Of a DNA stretch of 64,000 bases, positions 19,883 through 51,859 are shown piece after piece. The position numbers and the translations under genes were made by a program. Source of the DNA: Pyrenula massariospora (taxonomy: Eukaryota; Ascomycota; Eurotiomycetes; Pyrenulales; Pyrenulaceae); NCBI GenBank assembly GCA_021030905.1, contig JAGFMI010000008.1, forward strand, positions 186,001 through 250,000, given 5' to 3'. Each line of letters starts with the position of its first letter. Within the stretch, counting starts at the first letter, position 1. The notes beneath the pieces were generated by a model that was given only the letters and a program-made list of their open reading frames with translations, was not told the origin of the DNA and did no database searches.

Positions 19883-20982
19883 GCCTTTGATTTCATGCCG
19901 GCTCTTTGACTCATCTCACATACGTCGTTCATTAGTATAGTGAGATAATCGCAACATTTGCGTCTGATCTCTGTCATGTTCCGAAGGCCCCACCATACTT
20001 CCAACCGGCCTGTTCGTGGGGTGAACGAAACTGAGCTGTCTAACATGATTACTACAATATTCGCTACAGGCAGTCCGATTCTATCTCATCAGCATACAAC
20101 TGCGCCGATCTTTGTTGTGCATTGAATTCTTCGGTTTAATACAAGCTTATATGTTAATTGAGGCTGATGAAAATGAGAAAGGCACGAGTCAAATAGGGGT
20201 TCGAGTATTAAGAAATGTACTTTGCCACAAGATCCAAATCTTCACCCAAATTGTGCGGGTGAGCTAGTTCTGCGCAAATCTTGGACACGAATTCTTATCA
20301 AGCACCGTCCTAGTAATCTGTGTCAATCGACCGTCTCCGGCGGTAATCCAAAGCACGGTAAGGATCTGATGACAAGCTTCTGGCTGCCCCCTATCCCCTA
20401 CCCCACCCTCGTTGAAGGACAGGAAAATCAGACTGCCATTGAAGCTCACAGGTAATAAATGAAATTGTTTGCATGAGTCCTGTCCGACGGACGACCACGT
20501 AGTAAAAGCATCAGGGCATGTAGCTGGTCTATGTGCCCATCTGAACTTTGACCTATGCAGGTCTTGCGTGCGACCCAGACCTTCCTAAGACTGTTCAACT
20601 CGGGTGGTAGACAAAGCGGTGAAAGAGAAAGGACTTCCTTTGGGAGCACCCTGCGCTGGTGAGGGATGACCGAGTTCCAGACAAAGAATTTCGGAAAGAT
20701 CCATAGGACAGACATGGAATGACAATGGAGGAACCGAAGCAAAGAAACGGTGTTCAAATCTTCGAGGAAATCGGATGGAAGGTCGACAATTGCTCCACTA
20801 TACCAGCAAGCTATCTCTCCATTCCTCCGTCAGTGCAGTGAACTCGATCCTCGGCGTCCCACTCTTCCCCTTCCTCGCACGAGAACGTCCTTCAATCTGC
20901 CAACACCCACCCTATCTCCGCAGCCAGCCAAACCGGCCCCCCCAAACCCCCTTCCCCCTCCCCACCTCCAAAACCCATCCAA
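19883..20982. other. Intergenic region
   Basis: About 1.1 kb after the HEI10-like gene. Short open frames show no motif or sensible composition. From about 20850 the plus strand turns strongly C-rich, the leader of the small gene that follows. Confidence 0.45.
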
Positions 20983-21279
20983 ATGTGCACAACCCTCTAC
21001 AGCACCCACACCTCCTGCAACCACCGCGCCGCCGTCGCCCTCCACCCCTGCGTCGCCAAGCGCCTCGCCCACCGCCTGCCCGCCCGCACCACCCGCGCCT
21101 CTCCAACGGAGCAGACGCGCCGCCGGATGCTGGGAAAGTGCGCCAAAGAGCGCGGGCTGCGGAGCGATACGGTCGGGTTCTGTAGTTGGTGTAGGGCTGA
21201 GATGGGGCTTCCGGGGGAGGGGGAAGGGGAGGGGTGGAGGGGGGCGGAGGGGAGGGATTGCTTGGGGAATGTGTTGTGA
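20983..21279 (+). CDS. Small cysteine-containing protein of unknown function
   Basis: 98 residues from ATG 20983. Cysteines are spaced along the chain (MC at 2, SCNH, HPC, KCAKERG, and CSWC near residue 69), resembling the small orphan proteins with a C-terminal CxxC that are frequent in filamentous ascomycetes. It has no signal peptide, so it is probably cytosolic. The last ~25 residues are Gly/Glu-rich and read through G-rich DNA. Longer frames overlap on both strands but are Pro-rich translations of the same C-rich tract and less convincing. Function unknown; the call rests on Cys pattern and start context. Confidence 0.4.
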   Translation: MCTTLYSTHTSCNHRAAVALHPCVAKRLAHRLPARTTRASPTEQTRRRMLGKCAKERGLRSDTVGFCSWCRAEMGLPGEGEGEGWRGAEGRDCLGNVL

Positions 21280-39471: not shown

Positions 39472-42400
39472 TCAATCATCATCACTATCCACGTAGATCC
39501 CCGCAAAGTCCTCATCTTGGACCAGTGTCTGCCTTCTCTCAGGCGTGACCAGAATACACCCACCCCTCTCAATCCCGGGAATCTTCGCCTTCCTCGCCTC
39601 CATCGCCCTCAGTATCTCAGTCGCGCTCTTCACGTCATTCAGTTCCTTGTTCCCATGCACCTTCTCAAACGCCTTGTGCGGATCTTTCTCGACGGGCAGT
39701 ATGAGCGTATCGCTCGCGTAGTCCTTGACCGTTTTGGGCGAAGATGTGTAGGTCACAGCTTCATCGGAGGAGTTATTGAGGTATCGCGCGGTATTAGCCT
39801 CGACTGTCTGCGGATCTGTGAGACGAGTTCTAGCTCGATGACCAGAAGGGAGGTTGGCATTGGGAGGAGGGTCGAAGAGAAACTGAGAAAGATCCGAAAA
39901 ATTCCTGGATTCTTGCTTACCAGAATAGATGGCAGAAGGGCCATCGCCATATTTCATCGCGATTGGCTCAATGTGGTCCTCCTCGACATGGCTATACCAT
40001 GCCTCTGCTGTTGGGAAGCGGACAGTATGCACGACCTGTCCGTCTTCATTCCGGTCGAGGGTACGGCATTTACGCCACCAGCATTCGTAACCATGACGGT
40101 CGTCGCCTGTTAAGTGTTTGCGGATGTGTTTTCGAAGGGTGGCCAGGTTGTGTAACTCAGAACCGCATCCTTTCATAGCACATTGGTAGACGTAAGTTTT
40201 GACAGGCGACGGAGCGCGTACTTGAAGGTCAACTTGAGCAGGTGCCGAAGCTTGTGCTTGTGCACGAAGAGTGGCTTTTGACGGATGTTTGTTCTTTGCG
40301 CCTGGGGGTCGGCCACGGCGTTTTCCGCTTGGGTAAATAGCACCGGGTTTCTCCATGCTTTCTGGAGTGTGATTCGGAGAGCCGTCAGGGAGAACGCGTG
40401 CGTGATCTGGAAGACTTTTGGGGGGCCGAGGACTTACGGCGTCCTGTGGCCTGTCGGACGATGGCTTTGTGGAATCGGAGGGGTCTTCGAATGCTTTTGA
40501 CGTTTTTTGGCGGTGGCTGTCCACGGCGGGGTTGTCGGACCGCTCTTTCCTGATTGGCTGCCTTGGACCCTCGACATCAGACTGAGCATCTCTTCTACCA
40601 AAATGAGCCCTTTGTTTAAGCGCCCATTTCGGTGGGCCGGCCGGAATATCCTCGACCTCTACTCGTGGTACAGGAGGACCTCCTGGATCAACGCTGTCCC
40701 AATCGATGGTGTTAAAATCACAGTCCCATGTAAGATTAAGTCTGTGGGCCAATGCGAGCAGATGGCTGTTCAAGCCCTTCTCACTTGGATGTCTCCCAGC
40801 TGCGATAAGAATGTCCCTGGCTATCGTCTTGGATTCATAAAATGGCTTTATTAGAGCTTCTTTCCGATCGATGGTCTTCGCCATGACTGGAAGCGGCGGT
40901 TGCGTCCGCATTTCCGTATGCTGATGCTGCAGCGAGAAACTGTTCTCTGGAGGTAGAGGGTTATGGTATTGCTGTGGTGTCCCTGCGTAAGAATGATTCG
41001 ACGCTGGTTGGACAGCCGTATTGAATTGAAGAGGTGCAAAAGGATCGCTCGGAGCAACGTCGGCTTGCACTGTAGGCGGGCCTTGACTTGCAAAGTCGGG
41101 TTGAATCTCAGTAGATGGTGGTGGCGTCTCCGTTTTTGCTTTTTTTGATGGCATTACATAGTCTTCATCGTCGCTTAGCAAACTCAGATCAACTAATTCC
41201 GCGAAATCACGCTTTCTAGCTTGCGCCTCTTTCGAACCCGGGACAGGCTTAGGAACAGAAGGACTGGGGACCCCTAATCGCGGTTTAGATTTTGGGCCTG
41301 GTTTATTCGTACTCTTGGCCTCTTGCTTGATTGATGACTCTTGCTTGACGGGTGTACTGCTCACAGGCGTGCTTAGATTAGCTTGAGCGGGGGGATCAAG
41401 TGATACCATCTGAGTTTGGCTTTGAGCACCCTGAGGCTGAGATTGAGGCTGATTGGGTGAAGCAAGATCCGGGACGTTGCTAAGAAGCGACCGAGCGAAA
41501 TGACCTCGATGAAGGCAGAGGCCTTTGCTCTCAAGATGCTCACATAGTTGAAGATAACTAGGATTAAGGTCCAGCAAGGCAAGGATGACCTCTGGAGACA
41601 GTTCTTTTCCTTGATTGCCAGGATGGGCATTAAGCACTTTGACGGCAGCCTCAGCTAAGGACTTCCGTTTTGCTTCTGGCCAGATAGTGCTGCCGGTACT
41701 CGTAGGCTTGGTAGCTGCCACAGGTATAACCGCTGCTTTTACGTCTTTCGACTGTAGCTTTGCAGAAGAATTCGCGACTGGAGGTGGATGAGCATGAGAC
41801 GAATTTGTAGTACTCGTTGAAAATTGAAGTGGCTCACTTGAAATCGTAGAAGGTTGATTTGATGGCAACAGATCGCTATTGGTCGACTGGGACTCTTTCT
41901 TCTTGTTTGGTCCTCGTTGACGTCTCTCTGCAGGGAATCGCCCGAGGTCTGGCAGATTTTCCTCGTTGTCCTCAACAACCACCTTACCCCCAATCTTGTT
42001 GGGATTGATTGCGTTTGTAGCAGCCGGACGAGCAACGGCATTTGCCTTTGGATGGGCAGAAATAGGGGCCTGGCTGGTACTGGATGACTGGCTTGGCACT
42101 GAATGGTGTGGAGGAACAGCCTTGGATTTTGATTTTGTATGAGCAGGTAATGATGCTCTATTGGGTTGAAGCTTTGCCGATGCAGCTTTATCATTGCCAT
42201 CGCCATCGTCCATCGTTGCTAACATCTTCTGGAACATGCTTGGATCTTTATTCTTCAACTTTTTTATCTTCTCTAGCATCGCCATCATCTCGGCCTCATC
42301 CTCTCCCCCTTCTTCTTGAGAATCTACCGGCTGTTTGGATGCCCGAGGGTTAAGAGACTGCCTGGCAATAGAATTTGATGCTCCTGGTTTGGGGATCGGC

Positions 42401-43788
42401 TCAGACTGACGAGCTTTCTTTTCTCTTGGCTTGCGTATCGAGCCATCCTTATTGCGAGTAGGTTCTTTCGCTTTTCGCGGCCCAGCAGCCGGTGATGGAT
42501 GTGGAAGACGTGTCGAGTCTGATTGCTCCGAAACAGTCTGCCGATCCTCGGTCTTCTCTTGCGTATTTTGTCGTTCTAATACTTCCTTCTCCGCGGCCTC
42601 TTTCTTTCGTCGTTCGTACTCCTGGTGATATGGGTTGTAGACTTTGCTCGGATCTATGAAGTCTGGCATGCCAGCAGTCGGAGTATCTGCTTGTGGATAG
42701 GAGTTGGAACTGGACTCGCCTTCTCTTGCATTGGACACAGGCATAGACACATTGTTTACTGCGTTGAAATTATTCGGTCGAACGGTTGGAGCAATTTCGC
42801 TAACATCAGCATGATTCCGATACGGAGAGGAAATCCCTTGCGATCGAGACTGGGGATTATTGTTGGCGTAGCGATGGGTTTCCTTGGTACCGTAATTGCC
42901 ATACTGTCCAGATGATTGCTTCCCATATTGAGGAGAAGATGTCTGAGGTATAGCAGAATGCCGTTGCGTATTTGGAGTGTTGCCAGGGCGCGATGTGTAC
43001 GGCGAAGTAGATCTGTTGTGAGCTGCTGTCGAGTTTGTCGCATTGCCGACTGGCACGGGGTTTCCCATCGTTGGGGTATACGAAGTAGGCTGTTGCTGAA
43101 AGTTATTGACCGGCTGCGAATGCTGATTCTGTTTCCGCTTTGTGGCTCCTGTCAGTGCTGCAGCAGCCGAGGCAGCCAAGTTGTGTTGCGAAGACTGTGG
43201 CCGATTGTCCGTATAAGTATTGGACGTACCTAACCTTGAATAGCTATGATACACATTCTGCACTTGCGCTGGCGAGCTCACTCTTTCCTGACCAGTCCCA
43301 GAATGTCGTTGAAACCCAGCGGATATTGGTGTGTTTGACTGAGAAGTTCGATCGATTGAATTCTGATTCTGTACACCAGCAGATTCAAGGCCTGAGGCGT
43401 ACGCTAGACTGTTTAGAGCGTTCGTTTCAGGTTGCGTCGGAGCTTGAGAGGTAGTTCCATAGTAGCTGGCAGCGTTCCCGTTTGACACAGATGATCCATA
43501 GTCATTCCTTTGTCTATTGTAGTTGTAGGCTTGCTGCTGAGTTTGCCCGTTCTTCCAAGACTGACCACCGTAGTCCTGATTATCTTGGTTCAAGGTCCCG
43601 TATGCCTGTTGCGTCTGAGATGGCCAGTTGTAGTTGCTTTGCCCATATTGCTGTGCTGTAGATGATGGCTGCTGCAGGGTCGACGTACTCGCAGCCTGCC
43701 GACTGTTTCCATAACTTGACTCATTCGAATCGTTATTTGTTTGGTTCTGGTAGTAGTGGTTGTAGTTCTGAAGGCTCGAGTATGACAT
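39472..43788 (-). CDS. AT-hook and C2H2 zinc-finger protein with prion-like N-terminus
   Basis: One exon, 1,438 residues, start ATG 43786-43788 (MSYSSLQNYN); ten further codons are open upstream but begin with TTG. The first ~330 residues are rich in Gln, Asn, Tyr, Ser and Thr, a prion-like composition. Later come a Lys-rich region, a conserved helical segment (WPEAKRKSLAEAAVKVLN, then LNPSYLQLCEHLESKGLCL), KRDFAELVDLSLLSDDE, and a second conserved block (HPSEKGLNSHLLALAHRLNL). Near residue 1155 KRRGRPPGAKNK is an AT-hook, and near residue 1195 YQCAMKGCGSELHNL begins a C-x4-C-x12-H-x3-H finger, with a second Cys/His pair set after it (YECWWRKC...HVEEDH). The C-terminus is acidic. A nuclear chromatin-associated role is likely; assignment to a remodelling complex would be a guess. 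It shares a short promoter with RPL26. Confidence 0.85.
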   Translation of the reverse strand: MSYSSLQNYNHYYQNQTNNDSNESSYGNSRQAASTSTLQQPSSTAQQYGQSNYNWPSQTQQAYGTLNQDNQDYGGQSWKNGQTQQQAYNYNRQRNDYGSSVSNGNAASYYGTTSQAPTQPETNALNSLAYASGLESAGVQNQNSIDRTSQSNTPISAGFQRHSGTGQERVSSPAQVQNVYHSYSRLGTSNTYTDNRPQSSQHNLAASAAAALTGATKRKQNQHSQPVNNFQQQPTSYTPTMGNPVPVGNATNSTAAHNRSTSPYTSRPGNTPNTQRHSAIPQTSSPQYGKQSSGQYGNYGTKETHRYANNNPQSRSQGISSPYRNHADVSEIAPTVRPNNFNAVNNVSMPVSNAREGESSSNSYPQADTPTAGMPDFIDPSKVYNPYHQEYERRKKEAAEKEVLERQNTQEKTEDRQTVSEQSDSTRLPHPSPAAGPRKAKEPTRNKDGSIRKPREKKARQSEPIPKPGASNSIARQSLNPRASKQPVDSQEEGGEDEAEMMAMLEKIKKLKNKDPSMFQKMLATMDDGDGNDKAASAKLQPNRASLPAHTKSKSKAVPPHHSVPSQSSSTSQAPISAHPKANAVARPAATNAINPNKIGGKVVVEDNEENLPDLGRFPAERRQRGPNKKKESQSTNSDLLPSNQPSTISSEPLQFSTSTTNSSHAHPPPVANSSAKLQSKDVKAAVIPVAATKPTSTGSTIWPEAKRKSLAEAAVKVLNAHPGNQGKELSPEVILALLDLNPSYLQLCEHLESKGLCLHRGHFARSLLSNVPDLASPNQPQSQPQGAQSQTQMVSLDPPAQANLSTPVSSTPVKQESSIKQEAKSTNKPGPKSKPRLGVPSPSVPKPVPGSKEAQARKRDFAELVDLSLLSDDEDYVMPSKKAKTETPPPSTEIQPDFASQGPPTVQADVAPSDPFAPLQFNTAVQPASNHSYAGTPQQYHNPLPPENSFSLQHQHTEMRTQPPLPVMAKTIDRKEALIKPFYESKTIARDILIAAGRHPSEKGLNSHLLALAHRLNLTWDCDFNTIDWDSVDPGGPPVPRVEVEDIPAGPPKWALKQRAHFGRRDAQSDVEGPRQPIRKERSDNPAVDSHRQKTSKAFEDPSDSTKPSSDRPQDAVSPRPPKSLPDHARVLPDGSPNHTPESMEKPGAIYPSGKRRGRPPGAKNKHPSKATLRAQAQASAPAQVDLQVRAPSPVKTYVYQCAMKGCGSELHNLATLRKHIRKHLTGDDRHGYECWWRKCRTLDRNEDGQVVHTVRFPTAEAWYSHVEEDHIEPIAMKYGDGPSAIYSGKQESRNFSDLSQFLFDPPPNANLPSGHRARTRLTDPQTVEANTARYLNNSSDEAVTYTSSPKTVKDYASDTLILPVEKDPHKAFEKVHGNKELNDVKSATEILRAMEARKAKIPGIERGGCILVTPERRQTLVQDEDFAGIYVDSDDD

Positions 43789-48435: not shown

Positions 48436-49171
48436 ATGGAGTCCCTCAAAGCGGTGTTCTTCAAGCCTGACCCGGCTGTCCAAGTGCGGTGTTTCTATCT
48501 GTTCAAATATATGTATTGCTCACTAGATGTTCTAGATGCGCAAGTGTAACAGCCTTATCCGAGCCAACACAAGGAAGCTCGATCGTGATATTGCTCAGCT
48601 GAAAGCCCTCGACCAGAAAACTAGACAGTACATCTTACAATCCTCGAGGCGAGGCCAGAAGAATCCGTCACAGGCAAAGCAAGCTGCCGCAGAGACCCGG
48701 ACATTTGCAAAAGAGCTGCTTAGAGTAAGGAAACAATCGGCAAGGTTACACACAAGCAAAGCACAGCTCCAGAGCGTTCAGATGCAAGTGAATGAAGCTT
48801 TCTCCGTTCGAAAGATAGAAGGCAGCTTGAAAGCCAGCACTGGCATCATGAAAGACGTGAACACCCTTGTCCGGTTACCAGAGCTCACGGGCACCATGCA
48901 GCAGCTGAGCCAGGAGCTCATGAAAGCAGGCATCATAGAAGAGATGGTGGGTGATACTCTACCTAATGACGAGCTACTTGAAGGGGAAGATGAAGAAGCT
49001 GAAGCCGAAGTTGATAAGGTGCTTGGAGAGGTATTACAAGGAAAGCTGGGTAAGGTGGAAGCACCAGAGCCGAAGTTGCCAGAGCAGCCCGTGGAGGAGG
49101 AAGAGGATTTCGAGGACCAAGAGGCTACACTGGAGCAGATGAGAGGAAGACTAGAGGCTTTGAAGAGTTGA
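48436..49171 (+). CDS. VPS24: ESCRT-III subunit Vps24/CHMP3
   Basis: Two exons, 48436-48483 and 48536-49171, encoding 227 residues. Exon 1 codes MESLKAVFFKPDPAVQ. Exon 2 continues MRKCNSLIRANTRKLDRDIA with the long basic helical hairpin of the Snf7 family (helices to about residue 110), then MKDVNTLVRLPELTGTMQQL and a C-terminal acidic half (DELLEGEDEEAEAEVDKVL). The end EATLEQMRGRLEALKS matches a MIM-type helix that binds the MIT domain of Vps4. Vps24 caps Snf7 filaments on endosomes during multivesicular-body sorting. The 52 bp intron has a weaker donor, GTGCGG, but the frame and the VQMRKCN junction agree with the family. Confidence 0.94.
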
Positions 49172-49807: not shown

Positions 49808-51859
49808 ATGTCTGGAAAGCTTGATCAAGCACTCGACGACATTGTCAAGACCAACCGCAGCCAAACCCGTCGCAGGGCTCGCCGCGTCAAGCCTACCAAG
49901 ACAACTGCGGTCGCTGCCCCAGTCGGCGGAATCAAGAAGTCAACCAAGTCCGTCAAACAAGCCAAGGCCGTTCCTGGACCATCCTCTGGACCCCGCGAGA
50001 GCAAGATTCAAGTCAGTGGCTTGGTAAGGGTCTCGATTCTTCTTTGCTTTGCCTACAGCTTACATTTCGCCAGCCCCACGACGTCGGTGATAACATGATC
50101 AAGGTATGTTGACCATGAGGTCTCCACATTGGATTCGTCTCCGCCATCTTTTCTGAAACCGCGAGCTTTCGATTTCCATGCGAGGCGAAAACATAAGGGT
50201 GGCTCCCACATATATGAAACACTGTTACACACTTGGCGTACAAAGGCAAGAACTCCTTCGTGCTTTCGCTCGCTAGTAGCTAGCTTGATGCAAAGCCTGT
50301 CGAAGTTGAGTCGTCTTTGATCCCGCAATTGTTCGGCTCAAGCCTAGAGCAAGGCTCGGCTTGGAGAAAGTCGCAATGCAGGACGTCGTGTACCTTTGCA
50401 AATGATTTGCATTAATATCGATCCTTTCTCAACATTGGGTTTTACTTTCATTGAGTTCGGAAATCGAAGCATCAGCGAGCAAGGCATCAGCAAGCTTTAC
50501 AGCATAGCAAATCCATCTTTCACTGGAAATCGAGCGCCTGCGCGCTGACGGCATCAGCGCTCAACGTCATGCCAACAGAGTGTACTGCACCGGATATACG
50601 GGACGAGAGTCGTTTTCGAAACTCTTAGATAGGCAGGCTCGACAAAGTTTCAACAGGATTCAGGCGAAGGCTCGGCCAAGATATCTACCTGATATACCTT
50701 ATCACCAATCCCCCTTAGCTGTTTTAACCAACATTGCAAGCTTGCAACGCTTGACAGAGAGACAGTCCTTTTGGCAGAAAGGCTTTCTTCTCCTTTTTCT
50801 TGCTCACGTTGGTCGAACTGCAACCTCAACGCTTTTTGTCCCGCACGGTCGTTCCATGGATCAGCTGATACTCGACGGGCTCTCACATTGCCTCCAAGGT
50901 CCCCATTTACATGAGCTACTATTATAAGACAGTCTGAACTAGACTCTATACCCGTCTCTTTGGGCCTATGGAACATTCTCTTGGATAGATGCCTTGCTAC
51001 AACATACTAACTACTAATGCTTAATGCTTGCTCGCTGGTGCTTTTGATTTTGGTGGCATCAACGGCGGGTCTCTATTCCTCCGATATGTTGATCGCCTTC
51101 TGTGACAAGCCGTCGATCCGATCATTCTTTATCTCGTTGGCCTTTCGAGTTACTAATCACGGATCTCATGAATAGGAATACTTCGGCAAGACCATTGGAC
51201 CTGTCAAGAAGGTTCTGCTCAACTACAACAAGAATGGGCAGAGCGTTGGGGTTGCTACTATCATCTTCCGAGAGCGAGATGCAGCTTCACAGGCTGCCAA
51301 ACAATTGAACGGCACACGTGTAGACAATCGGCCGATGAGGGTCAGTCACAAAATTCACTACTCTCTGACAAAACTAATACTTGTACAGATCGAGGTCGTG
51401 ATGGATGCTAATTCGGCTCCCGAGCCAGTTGCCGCCAAATCTCTGGCTGACCGTGTTGCGTATAGCTCTCAACTCTATCTCAATGTGTTCATGCTACTGA
51501 CTAGAGCTAGTGCGAACCCGAAAGCACAACCGAAGTCCGCCGTCGCAAATAAGAATTCTGAGAAGGCCAAGGACGGGAAAGGCGCCGCACGTACCAAGCG
51601 TGGCCGCAACGCCAACCGTCCCAAGCGCAAGACTGCAGAAGAGCTGGACGCTGAGATGGCAGACTACTTCGGTGACGGTGGGAACGGCGCTGCAGCAGCC
51701 GCCACGGCGGATGCAGGTGCCACGAACGGAACCGTTGCCACTGGTGGCGATGCGATGGATGAGATTTCTGTTAGTAGCCCGGATTTTATTTATTGAATCT
51801 TGAATGTGTATGTGTCTTGTTCGAAGAATGGGCACTAACCGATTTATGATTATCAGTGA
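49808..51859 (+). CDS. YRA1: mRNA export adaptor Yra1/ALY (REF family)
   Basis: Exons 49808-50023, 50074-50103, 51176-51340, 51389-51459, 51511-51769 and stop codon 51857-51859; 247 residues. The N-terminal GKLDQALDDIVKTNR is the REF N-box that binds the UAP56/Sub2 helicase. An Arg/Lys-rich region follows, then an RRM starting at KIQVSGLPHDV and running through EYFGKTIGPVKKVLLNYN, GVATIIF and QLNGTRVDNRPM. The C-box LDAEMADYF lies in the last third. The protein couples splicing and TREX to nuclear export of mRNA. Introns are 50, 1,072, 48, 51 and 87 bp. The second is exceptional and is listed separately. The last (donor GTTAGT, branch CACTAAC, acceptor TATCAG) leaves only TGA in the final exon; unspliced, the frame ends at 51796 with eight extra residues. 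Confidence 0.9.
50104..51175 (+). other. 1,072 bp intron 2 of the Yra1/ALY gene
   Basis: Donor GTATGT at 50104, branch TACTAAT at 51151-51157, acceptor AATAG ending at 51175. It splits the RRM in phase 0 between GDNMIK and EYFGKT, a junction that needs joining to give a normal RRM. Introns elsewhere in this window are 45-114 bp. Retention gives an immediate stop (GTA TGT TGA). A further tandem pair of branch-like sequences, TACTAAC-TACTAAT, lies at 51005-51018, well upstream of the used acceptor. No conserved open frame or snoRNA box pair was seen inside it. Confidence 0.85.

What the first reader, a model, noticed from the sequence alone, without database searches (positions are those of the whole stretch)
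50104..51175. Yra1/ALY gene keeps a 1.07 kb intron at the position of yeast's autoregulatory intron
All other introns I could place here are 45-114 bp; this one is 1,072 bp. It interrupts the RRM in phase 0 just before EYFGKT. In S. cerevisiae, as I remember it, YRA1 has a 285-nt first exon and a 766-nt intron that falls just before EFFASQ, the equivalent point, and slow splicing of it lets Yra1 limit its own level. The same position and phase in a filamentous ascomycete suggests an ancient regulatory intron rather than chance. Retention gives a stop after two codons. A tandem TACTAAC-TACTAAT lies at 51005-51018 besides the likely branch at 51151, which could slow or divert splicing; an AG at 51108-51109 would also lead to an in-frame stop.
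Basis: partly seen in the sequence, partly recalled or inferred. Interest (0 to 1): 0.75.

Follow-up and report, generated by a model that had tools for sequence, protein, structure and literature searches.

The report
Long conserved intron in RNA-export gene
A fungal gene for the RNA-export protein Yra1/ALY carries a 1,072-base intron at the place where baker's yeast has the intron by which Yra1 limits its own level, so this form of self-control may be older than thought, but nobody has yet shown that it works here.

Summary
Window 49808-51859 (+) encodes a Yra1/ALY protein. Its second intron, 50104-51175, is 1,072 bp, phase 0, K|EYFGKT; 14 of 16 introns placed elsewhere by rough, length-capped models are 46-114 bp. 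Published S. cerevisiae coordinates (exon 1 of 285 nt, intron 286-1051) put the yeast intron at the same codon boundary and phase (VR|EFFASQ, residues recalled). Retention gives a stop at the third intron codon. No strong internal donor was found, so a hidden exon is unlikely but not excluded.

New here: an 18-pair long-range helix (50466-50483 with 51027-51044), stronger than any in 1,112 dinucleotide shuffles. Its 3' arm follows the tandem TACTAAC-TACTAAT, which lies in a 119-base AG-free stretch. The branch site nearest the acceptor is ordinary, so the yeast system's weak branchpoint is not met.

Best reading: an ancient intron that limits Yra1/ALY by slow splicing and decay of the retained form. 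Shared position is well supported; regulation is inferred. Long YRA1 introns are published for budding yeasts; my listings showed none for filamentous ascomycetes.

The parts
49808..50023 (+). ALY exon 1 (coding part): N-terminal motif MSGKLDQALDDIVKTNRSQ and start of RRM
   Evidence: aligns with REF2/ALYREF N-terminus
50024..50073 (+). intron 1, 50 bp, GTAAGG...CCAG
   Evidence: one search used an end one base short
50074..50103 (+). exon 2, 30 nt, PHDVGDNMIK (skipped by the crude gene finder, needed by the RRM alignment)
50104..51175 (+). intron 2, 1,072 bp, phase 0, GTATGT...AATAG: the finding
50110..50112 (+). in-frame TGA met at once if intron 2 is retained
50466..50483 (+). 5' arm of the 18-pair long-range helix
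50469..50564 (+). three copies of GCATCAGC (50469, 50484, 50551), the first inside the 5' arm
50989..51107 (+). AG-free stretch holding the tandem branch sites
51005..51018 (+). tandem branch-site-like TACTAAC-TACTAAT; next AG is 99 and 92 nt from the two branch A's
51027..51044 (+). 3' arm of the long-range helix, beginning 9 nt after the tandem sites
51108..51109 (+). first AG after the tandem sites; its use leads to a stop after 21 codons
51151..51157 (+). likely used branch site TACTAAT, A 19 nt from the acceptor
51176..51340 (+). exon 3, rest of the RRM (EYFGKT...NRPMR)
51341..51388 (+). intron 3, 48 bp
51389..51459 (+). exon 4
51460..51510 (+). intron 4, 51 bp (acceptor 51504 also keeps frame; weak donor GTATAG)
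51511..51769 (+). exon 5, with C-box-like EELDAEMADYF at 51638-51670
51770..51856 (+). possible intron 5, 87 bp, before a TGA stop at 51857-51859; otherwise the frame stops at 51794-51796
   Evidence: tentative

Best explanation
This is the orthologue of the YRA1 intron. It was in the gene of the common ancestor of filamentous ascomycetes and budding yeasts and has stayed long because it controls how much Yra1/ALY is made. Most likely the long intron is spliced more slowly than its neighbours; the retained form carries a stop two codons into the intron, with later introns downstream, and is lost by nonsense-mediated decay; more Yra1/ALY on the transcript means less splicing. The long-range helix probably folds the middle of the intron away and sets the distance between donor and branch site, while the tandem branch sites in an AG-free stretch compete with the proximal one. 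Shown here: gene, intron, position, phase, stop, tandem sites and AG-free stretch in the sequence, and a predicted helix far above chance. Inferred: that the helix forms in the cell, slow splicing, decay, feedback, and the roles of helix and tandem sites.
For: Gene identity: RRM_1 E = 1.9e-12; best solved relatives are THOC4 (ALYREF, 1.3e-13) and REF2, with the N-terminal motif aligned; the C-terminal EELDAEMADYF resembles the yeast C-box EDLDKEMADYF. Position: same boundary and phase as the yeast intron from published coordinates with recalled residues, aligned without gaps around the junction. By my own estimate, one of 5 introns falling on one given site of about 3 x 226 by chance is about 0.7%. 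Unbroken intron: with a hand-set donor matrix no site of score 0 or more inside it, mean 7.2 in 228 overlapping control stretches, none of the 228 as low; at cut-offs 1, 1.6 and 2, 11, 33 and 54 of 228 are as low. It follows that no internal-exon candidate with such a donor exists, while 9 of 9 control segments had one. Helix: -35.6 kcal/mol, 0 of 1,112 shuffles; 12 of its 18 pairs have probability 0.98-1 in three foldings. AG-free stretch: of 27 ACTAAY sites in the window only the two tandem ones lie more than 58 nt from the next AG. Literature (passages): Yarrowia YRA1 intron 1 of 850 bp, retained form an NMD target, retention 27-fold up in upf1; S. schoenii YRA1 introns of 850 and 748 bp; yeast autoregulation; a parallel in fungal srp2, whose long intron is retained and decayed by NMD in Neurospora.
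Against: No RNA evidence and no relative. The proximal branch site TACTAAT is ordinary, 13th of 18 by score, and the donor GTATGT is good, so the intron need not be slow. Intron structure overall is not exceptional: z -1.14 and 3 of 20 shuffles fold at least as well, for the first 997 of 1,072 nt. A run of 18 or more pairs of any strength occurs in 5 of 1,112 shuffles, and one of 57 other window segments has a stronger helix, in a region of C- and G-rich tracts. The window's plus strand has 5 AG-free gaps this long or longer among 4,138. This gene's own intron 4 donor scores -3.6, so a hidden exon with a weak donor is not excluded. In Yarrowia the authors think the S. cerevisiae decay route is probably not conserved. 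Many ancient introns are shared without known function.
Confidence: 0.6

Rival explanations
1. Ancient intron, neutral length: the position is shared by descent, but the extra length is drift or an old insertion and has no regulatory role.
For: The proximal branch site and donor look normal; whole-intron folding is not unusual; no Rfam family and no Pfam domain of note inside.
Against: Long YRA1 introns in budding yeasts, in S. cerevisiae at this same site; strong helix beside the tandem sites; no strong internal donors.
Confidence: 0.22
2. Insertion of a small transposon whose terminal inverted repeats are the helix arms (about 579 bp, 50466-51044).
For: The arms could be read as terminal inverted repeats.
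Against: No target-site duplication beyond a chance-like 4-mer, and no second copy of the arms or the intron in the window. Genome copy number could not be tested.
Confidence: 0.07
3. The intron carries another product: a snoRNA or other ncRNA, an alternative start, a hidden exon or a nested gene.
For: Open stretches of 139 aa (+) and 118 aa (-) lie inside. A hidden exon with a weak donor cannot be excluded, since intron 4 of this gene has a donor of score -3.6. I raised this rival from 0.08 to 0.10 for that reason.
Against: No Rfam match even at E <= 1; of 5 open stretches tested the best Pfam hit is E = 0.075, far below its cut-off; no internal donor of score 0 or more; the TAG just before EYFGKT closes that frame upstream.
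Confidence: 0.1
4. The tandem sites and the AG at 51109 form a regulated alternative acceptor giving a truncated protein or an NMD form, rather than (or besides) simple retention.
For: Tandem TACTAAC-TACTAAT in an AG-free stretch; use of 51109 ends at the TAG of the real acceptor.
Against: AAG is a poor acceptor (general knowledge) and lies 92-99 nt from the branch A's. Predicted pairing does not decide: in the flanked folds the G of both AG 51109 and the real acceptor is mostly paired.
Confidence: 0.15

Closest known systems
S. cerevisiae YRA1 intron (autoregulation by inefficient splicing; Edc3p/Mex67p-dependent decay of the pre-mRNA)
   Same: Same gene family, same codon boundary and phase, very long for its genome, C-box kept; retention brings a stop in both (for yeast as reported).
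   Different: Here an extra 50-bp intron splits the upstream coding part, the proximal branch site is ordinary, a tandem branch site and a strong predicted helix are present, and autoregulation is unproven. A predicted RNA structure in the yeast intron is reported conserved within Saccharomycetaceae (PMC4937481, passage); I did not compare it with this one.
Yarrowia lipolytica YRA1 (YALI0A20867g) intron 1, 850 bp, NMD target when retained (PMC2911113)
   Same: Long intron in YRA1; the expected fate of the retained form is NMD.
   Different: Branch TGCTGAC 3 nt from the acceptor, called degenerate there; I did not see its exact position in the protein.
Retained long intron of fungal srp2 / animal SRSF5 (PMC4379411)
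   Same: RNA-binding-protein gene with an unusually long intron in filamentous ascomycetes whose retention introduces a stop; decayed by NMD in Neurospora.
   Different: Different gene; retention demonstrated there, not here.
Zipper-stem introns of yeast (RPS17B, RPL7B)
   Same: A long-range helix shortens the path from donor to branch site.
   Different: The helix here does not start near the donor; predicted donor-to-branch path is 25, 82 or 125 steps depending on the flank folded, against an average of 26.67 for wild-type RPS17B (PMC2536676, passage).

Membership tests
Yra1/ALY (REF) protein | Central RRM of ALY type | tested here: met
   RRM_1 E = 1.9e-12; THOC4 (ALYREF) E = 1.3e-13
Yra1/ALY (REF) protein | Conserved N- and C-terminal motifs | tested here: met
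   N-terminus aligns with REF2/ALYREF; EELDAEMADYF against yeast EDLDKEMADYF of 5sup
YRA1 autoregulatory intron | Position and phase of the yeast intron | tested here: met
   yeast residues near the junction recalled, only length and C-terminus checked
YRA1 autoregulatory intron | Long intron for the genome | tested here: met
   1,072 bp against 46-114 bp for 14 of 16 others in rough, length-capped models; uncapped models propose other long ones, three of five judged artefacts and two untested. Window only, not genome-wide
YRA1 autoregulatory intron | Long first exon | tested here: inconclusive
   246 coding nt before the intron (yeast 285), but split by a 50-bp intron; 5' UTR unknown
YRA1 autoregulatory intron | Weak or non-consensus branch site | tested here: not met
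   TACTAAT, 13th of 18 in score, A 19 nt from the acceptor
YRA1 autoregulatory intron | Intact C-terminal domain | tested here: met
   C-box-like motif present; named as contributing in PMC6450643 (passage)
YRA1 autoregulatory intron | Inefficient splicing with feedback by the protein | not testable with these tools
   No RNA data
Zipper-stem intron | Stable helix that brings donor and branch site close | tested here: inconclusive
   Helix strong; predicted path 25, 82 or 125 by context

The most novel reading that the evidence does not exclude
The ALY intron is a structural splicing switch: the long-range helix presents the tandem TACTAAC-TACTAAT as an unpaired decoy branch in an AG-free stretch, so U2 is held there without a good acceptor and the intron is retained or mis-spliced to a stop; Yra1/ALY, an RNA-annealing protein, sets the balance by promoting or melting the helix. 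If so, feedback by this intron dates from before the split of budding yeasts and filamentous ascomycetes, while its mechanism has changed.
Probability: 0.15. Interest if true: 0.75.

Novelty: new variant of a known kind. Interest (0 to 1): 0.5.

Why it matters
Intron-based autoregulation of YRA1 is a classic case in budding yeast, where few introns remain. A same-site long intron in an intron-rich filamentous fungus would suggest that the regulation came first and explain why yeasts kept this intron, and it makes the question testable in fungi with ordinary NMD and many introns.

Tried and rejected
Hidden exons: no candidate with a donor of score 0 or more (one fact seen twice, since the same donor matrix rules both). 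Of 9 control segments 9 had a candidate in some phase and 7 a frame-keeping one. Nested protein or ncRNA: nothing convincing. Transposon with the helix arms as ends: no target-site duplication, no second copy in the window. Relatives: genome contigs gave 310 and 124 pattern hits and viral contigs 22, 254 and 0, none confirmed (28, 40, 71); this says nothing about fungi. The first gene finder was far too permissive (one 64-kb 'gene') and is discarded; the second is rough. In one search I scored 13 of the 16 introns plus 5 of this gene, leaving out those of 56, 159 and 163 bp. One search listed introns 1 and 4 with wrong ends; one search listed possible intron 5 from a start two bases off, so its donor score there is void. 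The donor cut-off was chosen after looking, and the contrast weakens at higher cut-offs. GCATCAGC: 6 in the window against 3.1 expected, 7 of 100 shuffles with as many, so only weakly unusual.

Full report
What is there. The plus strand from 49808 encodes a Yra1/ALY protein in five or six exons. Pfam gives RRM_1 at 1.9e-12; the best solved relatives are THOC4 (ALYREF, 1.3e-13) and REF2, the latter aligned from the first residue. The C-terminal EELDAEMADYF resembles the yeast C-box seen in 5sup. Introns 1, 3 and 4 are 50, 48 and 51 (or 45) bp, a possible intron 5 is 87 bp, and intron 2 is 1,072 bp, 50104-51175, phase 0.

Same place as yeast. PMC2864733 (passages seen) gives the YRA1 intron boundaries as nt 285 and 1052 and the last stop nucleotide as 1447, counted from the AUG: exon 1 of 95 codons, intron of 766 nt, 226 aa. 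PMC6450643 (passages) prints 776 nt. My recalled Yra1 is 226 aa and its residues 95|96 are VR|EFFASQ. In the alignment this is the column of K|EYFGKT, with no gap between the LP motif and the junction in either protein. The yeast residues near the junction come from memory; only total length and the last 27 residues were checked.

Long and apparently unbroken. With a crude gene finder the other introns are 46-163 bp (16 introns, cap 200 bp) or 50-114 bp (9 introns, cap 250 bp, higher intron cost). With introns up to 2,000 bp allowed it proposed further ones of 341, 391, 571, 894 and 1,081 bp, and in this gene fused introns 1 and 2, skipping exon 2. Exon 2 is kept because the RRM needs it; the 341-, 391- and 571-bp ones conflict with Pfam-supported neighbouring genes; the 894- and 1,081-bp ones are untested. 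Inside intron 2 no site reaches score 0 by a hand-set donor matrix, against a mean of 7.2 in 228 overlapping control stretches on both strands, none of them as low; at cut-offs 1, 1.6 and 2 there are 11, 33 and 54 as low, so the depletion is suggestive rather than firm. Hence no internal exon with such a donor, while 9 of 9 chosen control segments gave one. A weaker donor is possible: this gene's intron 4 donor scores -3.6. No Rfam family appears at gathering level in the window or at E <= 1 in 49900-51400. Five open stretches in or overlapping the intron gave nothing convincing in Pfam, best E = 0.075.

Parts of the intron. Donor GTATGT; likely branch TACTAAT with its A 19 nt from AATAG; score 13th of the 18 introns compared, so ordinary. 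AG-free gaps of this size are not unique: 5 of 4,138 on the plus strand are as long or longer, this one included. The first AG, 51108-51109, would add 21 codons and stop on the TAG of the real acceptor. The best helix of the intron has 18 pairs, 50466-50483 with 51027-51044, -35.6 kcal/mol; none of 1,112 dinucleotide shuffles reach that energy (best -33.0), although 5 hold a run of 18 or more pairs, and one of 57 other window segments has a stronger helix, a segment with C-rich and G-rich inverted repeats. Twelve of the 18 pairs have probability 0.98-1 alone or with flanks, the outer ones 0.24-0.81, and the tandem sites are unpaired except for the last base. Against this, the first 997 nt of the intron fold no better than shuffles (z -1.14, 3 of 20 as good), and the predicted state of the donor depends on the flank: unpaired 0.89-0.97 in the intron alone, 0.02-0.18 with flanks; the real acceptor is mostly paired where it was measured.

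How it likely works. In S. cerevisiae a long first exon, long intron, weak branchpoint and intact C-terminal domain are reported to contribute to autoregulation (PMC6450643, passage, citing Preker and Guthrie 2006, which is not held). Here length and C-terminal motif are met, the first exon is inconclusive, the weak branch is not met. A strong distal tandem branch without a near AG could give inefficiency by another route; this is inference. Retention stops translation at once, and later introns remain downstream, so NMD is the expected fate, as shown for Yarrowia YRA1 by northern blot in NMD mutants, though RT-PCR there saw no retained form (PMC2911113, passages), and by q-RT-PCR in a later paper (PMC6351623, passage). 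Neurospora srp2 shows that a filamentous ascomycete uses the same logic; that intron is in the longest 3% there and the longest 1% in Aspergillus (PMC4379411, passages).

What is known and what is new. Long YRA1 introns are published for hemiascomycetes and for Saccharomycopsis schoenii (PMC13148404, passage). Full-text searches with Yra1 and Pezizomycotina, Neurospora, Aspergillus, fungi or long intron and with YRA1, intron, autoregulat, splicing brought up, in the listings and in passages of the 15 papers I opened, no description of this intron in a filamentous ascomycete. I therefore call it a new variant of a known kind, with function unproven. On rechecking I raised one rival (hidden exon or other product) from 0.08 to 0.10 because of the weak donor of intron 4; the other odds stand.

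Noticed in passing
20859-21255: C-rich and G-rich tracts forming strong inverted repeats, including a perfect 16-mer (CCCCTTCCCCCTCCCC / GGGGAGGGGGAAGGGG at 20948 and 21214).
   Followed up: partly
48536-49171: Upstream neighbour on the same strand encodes a Snf7-family (ESCRT-III-like) protein; its start may lie in an earlier exon.
   Followed up: partly
39472-43788 (-): A 1,438-aa open frame without a Pfam hit, the strongest coding signal in the window by the crude gene finder.
   Followed up: no
51460-51510: Intron 4 of the ALY gene has a weak donor (GTATAG) and two acceptors in the same frame, 51504 and 51510, which would change the protein by two residues.
   Followed up: no
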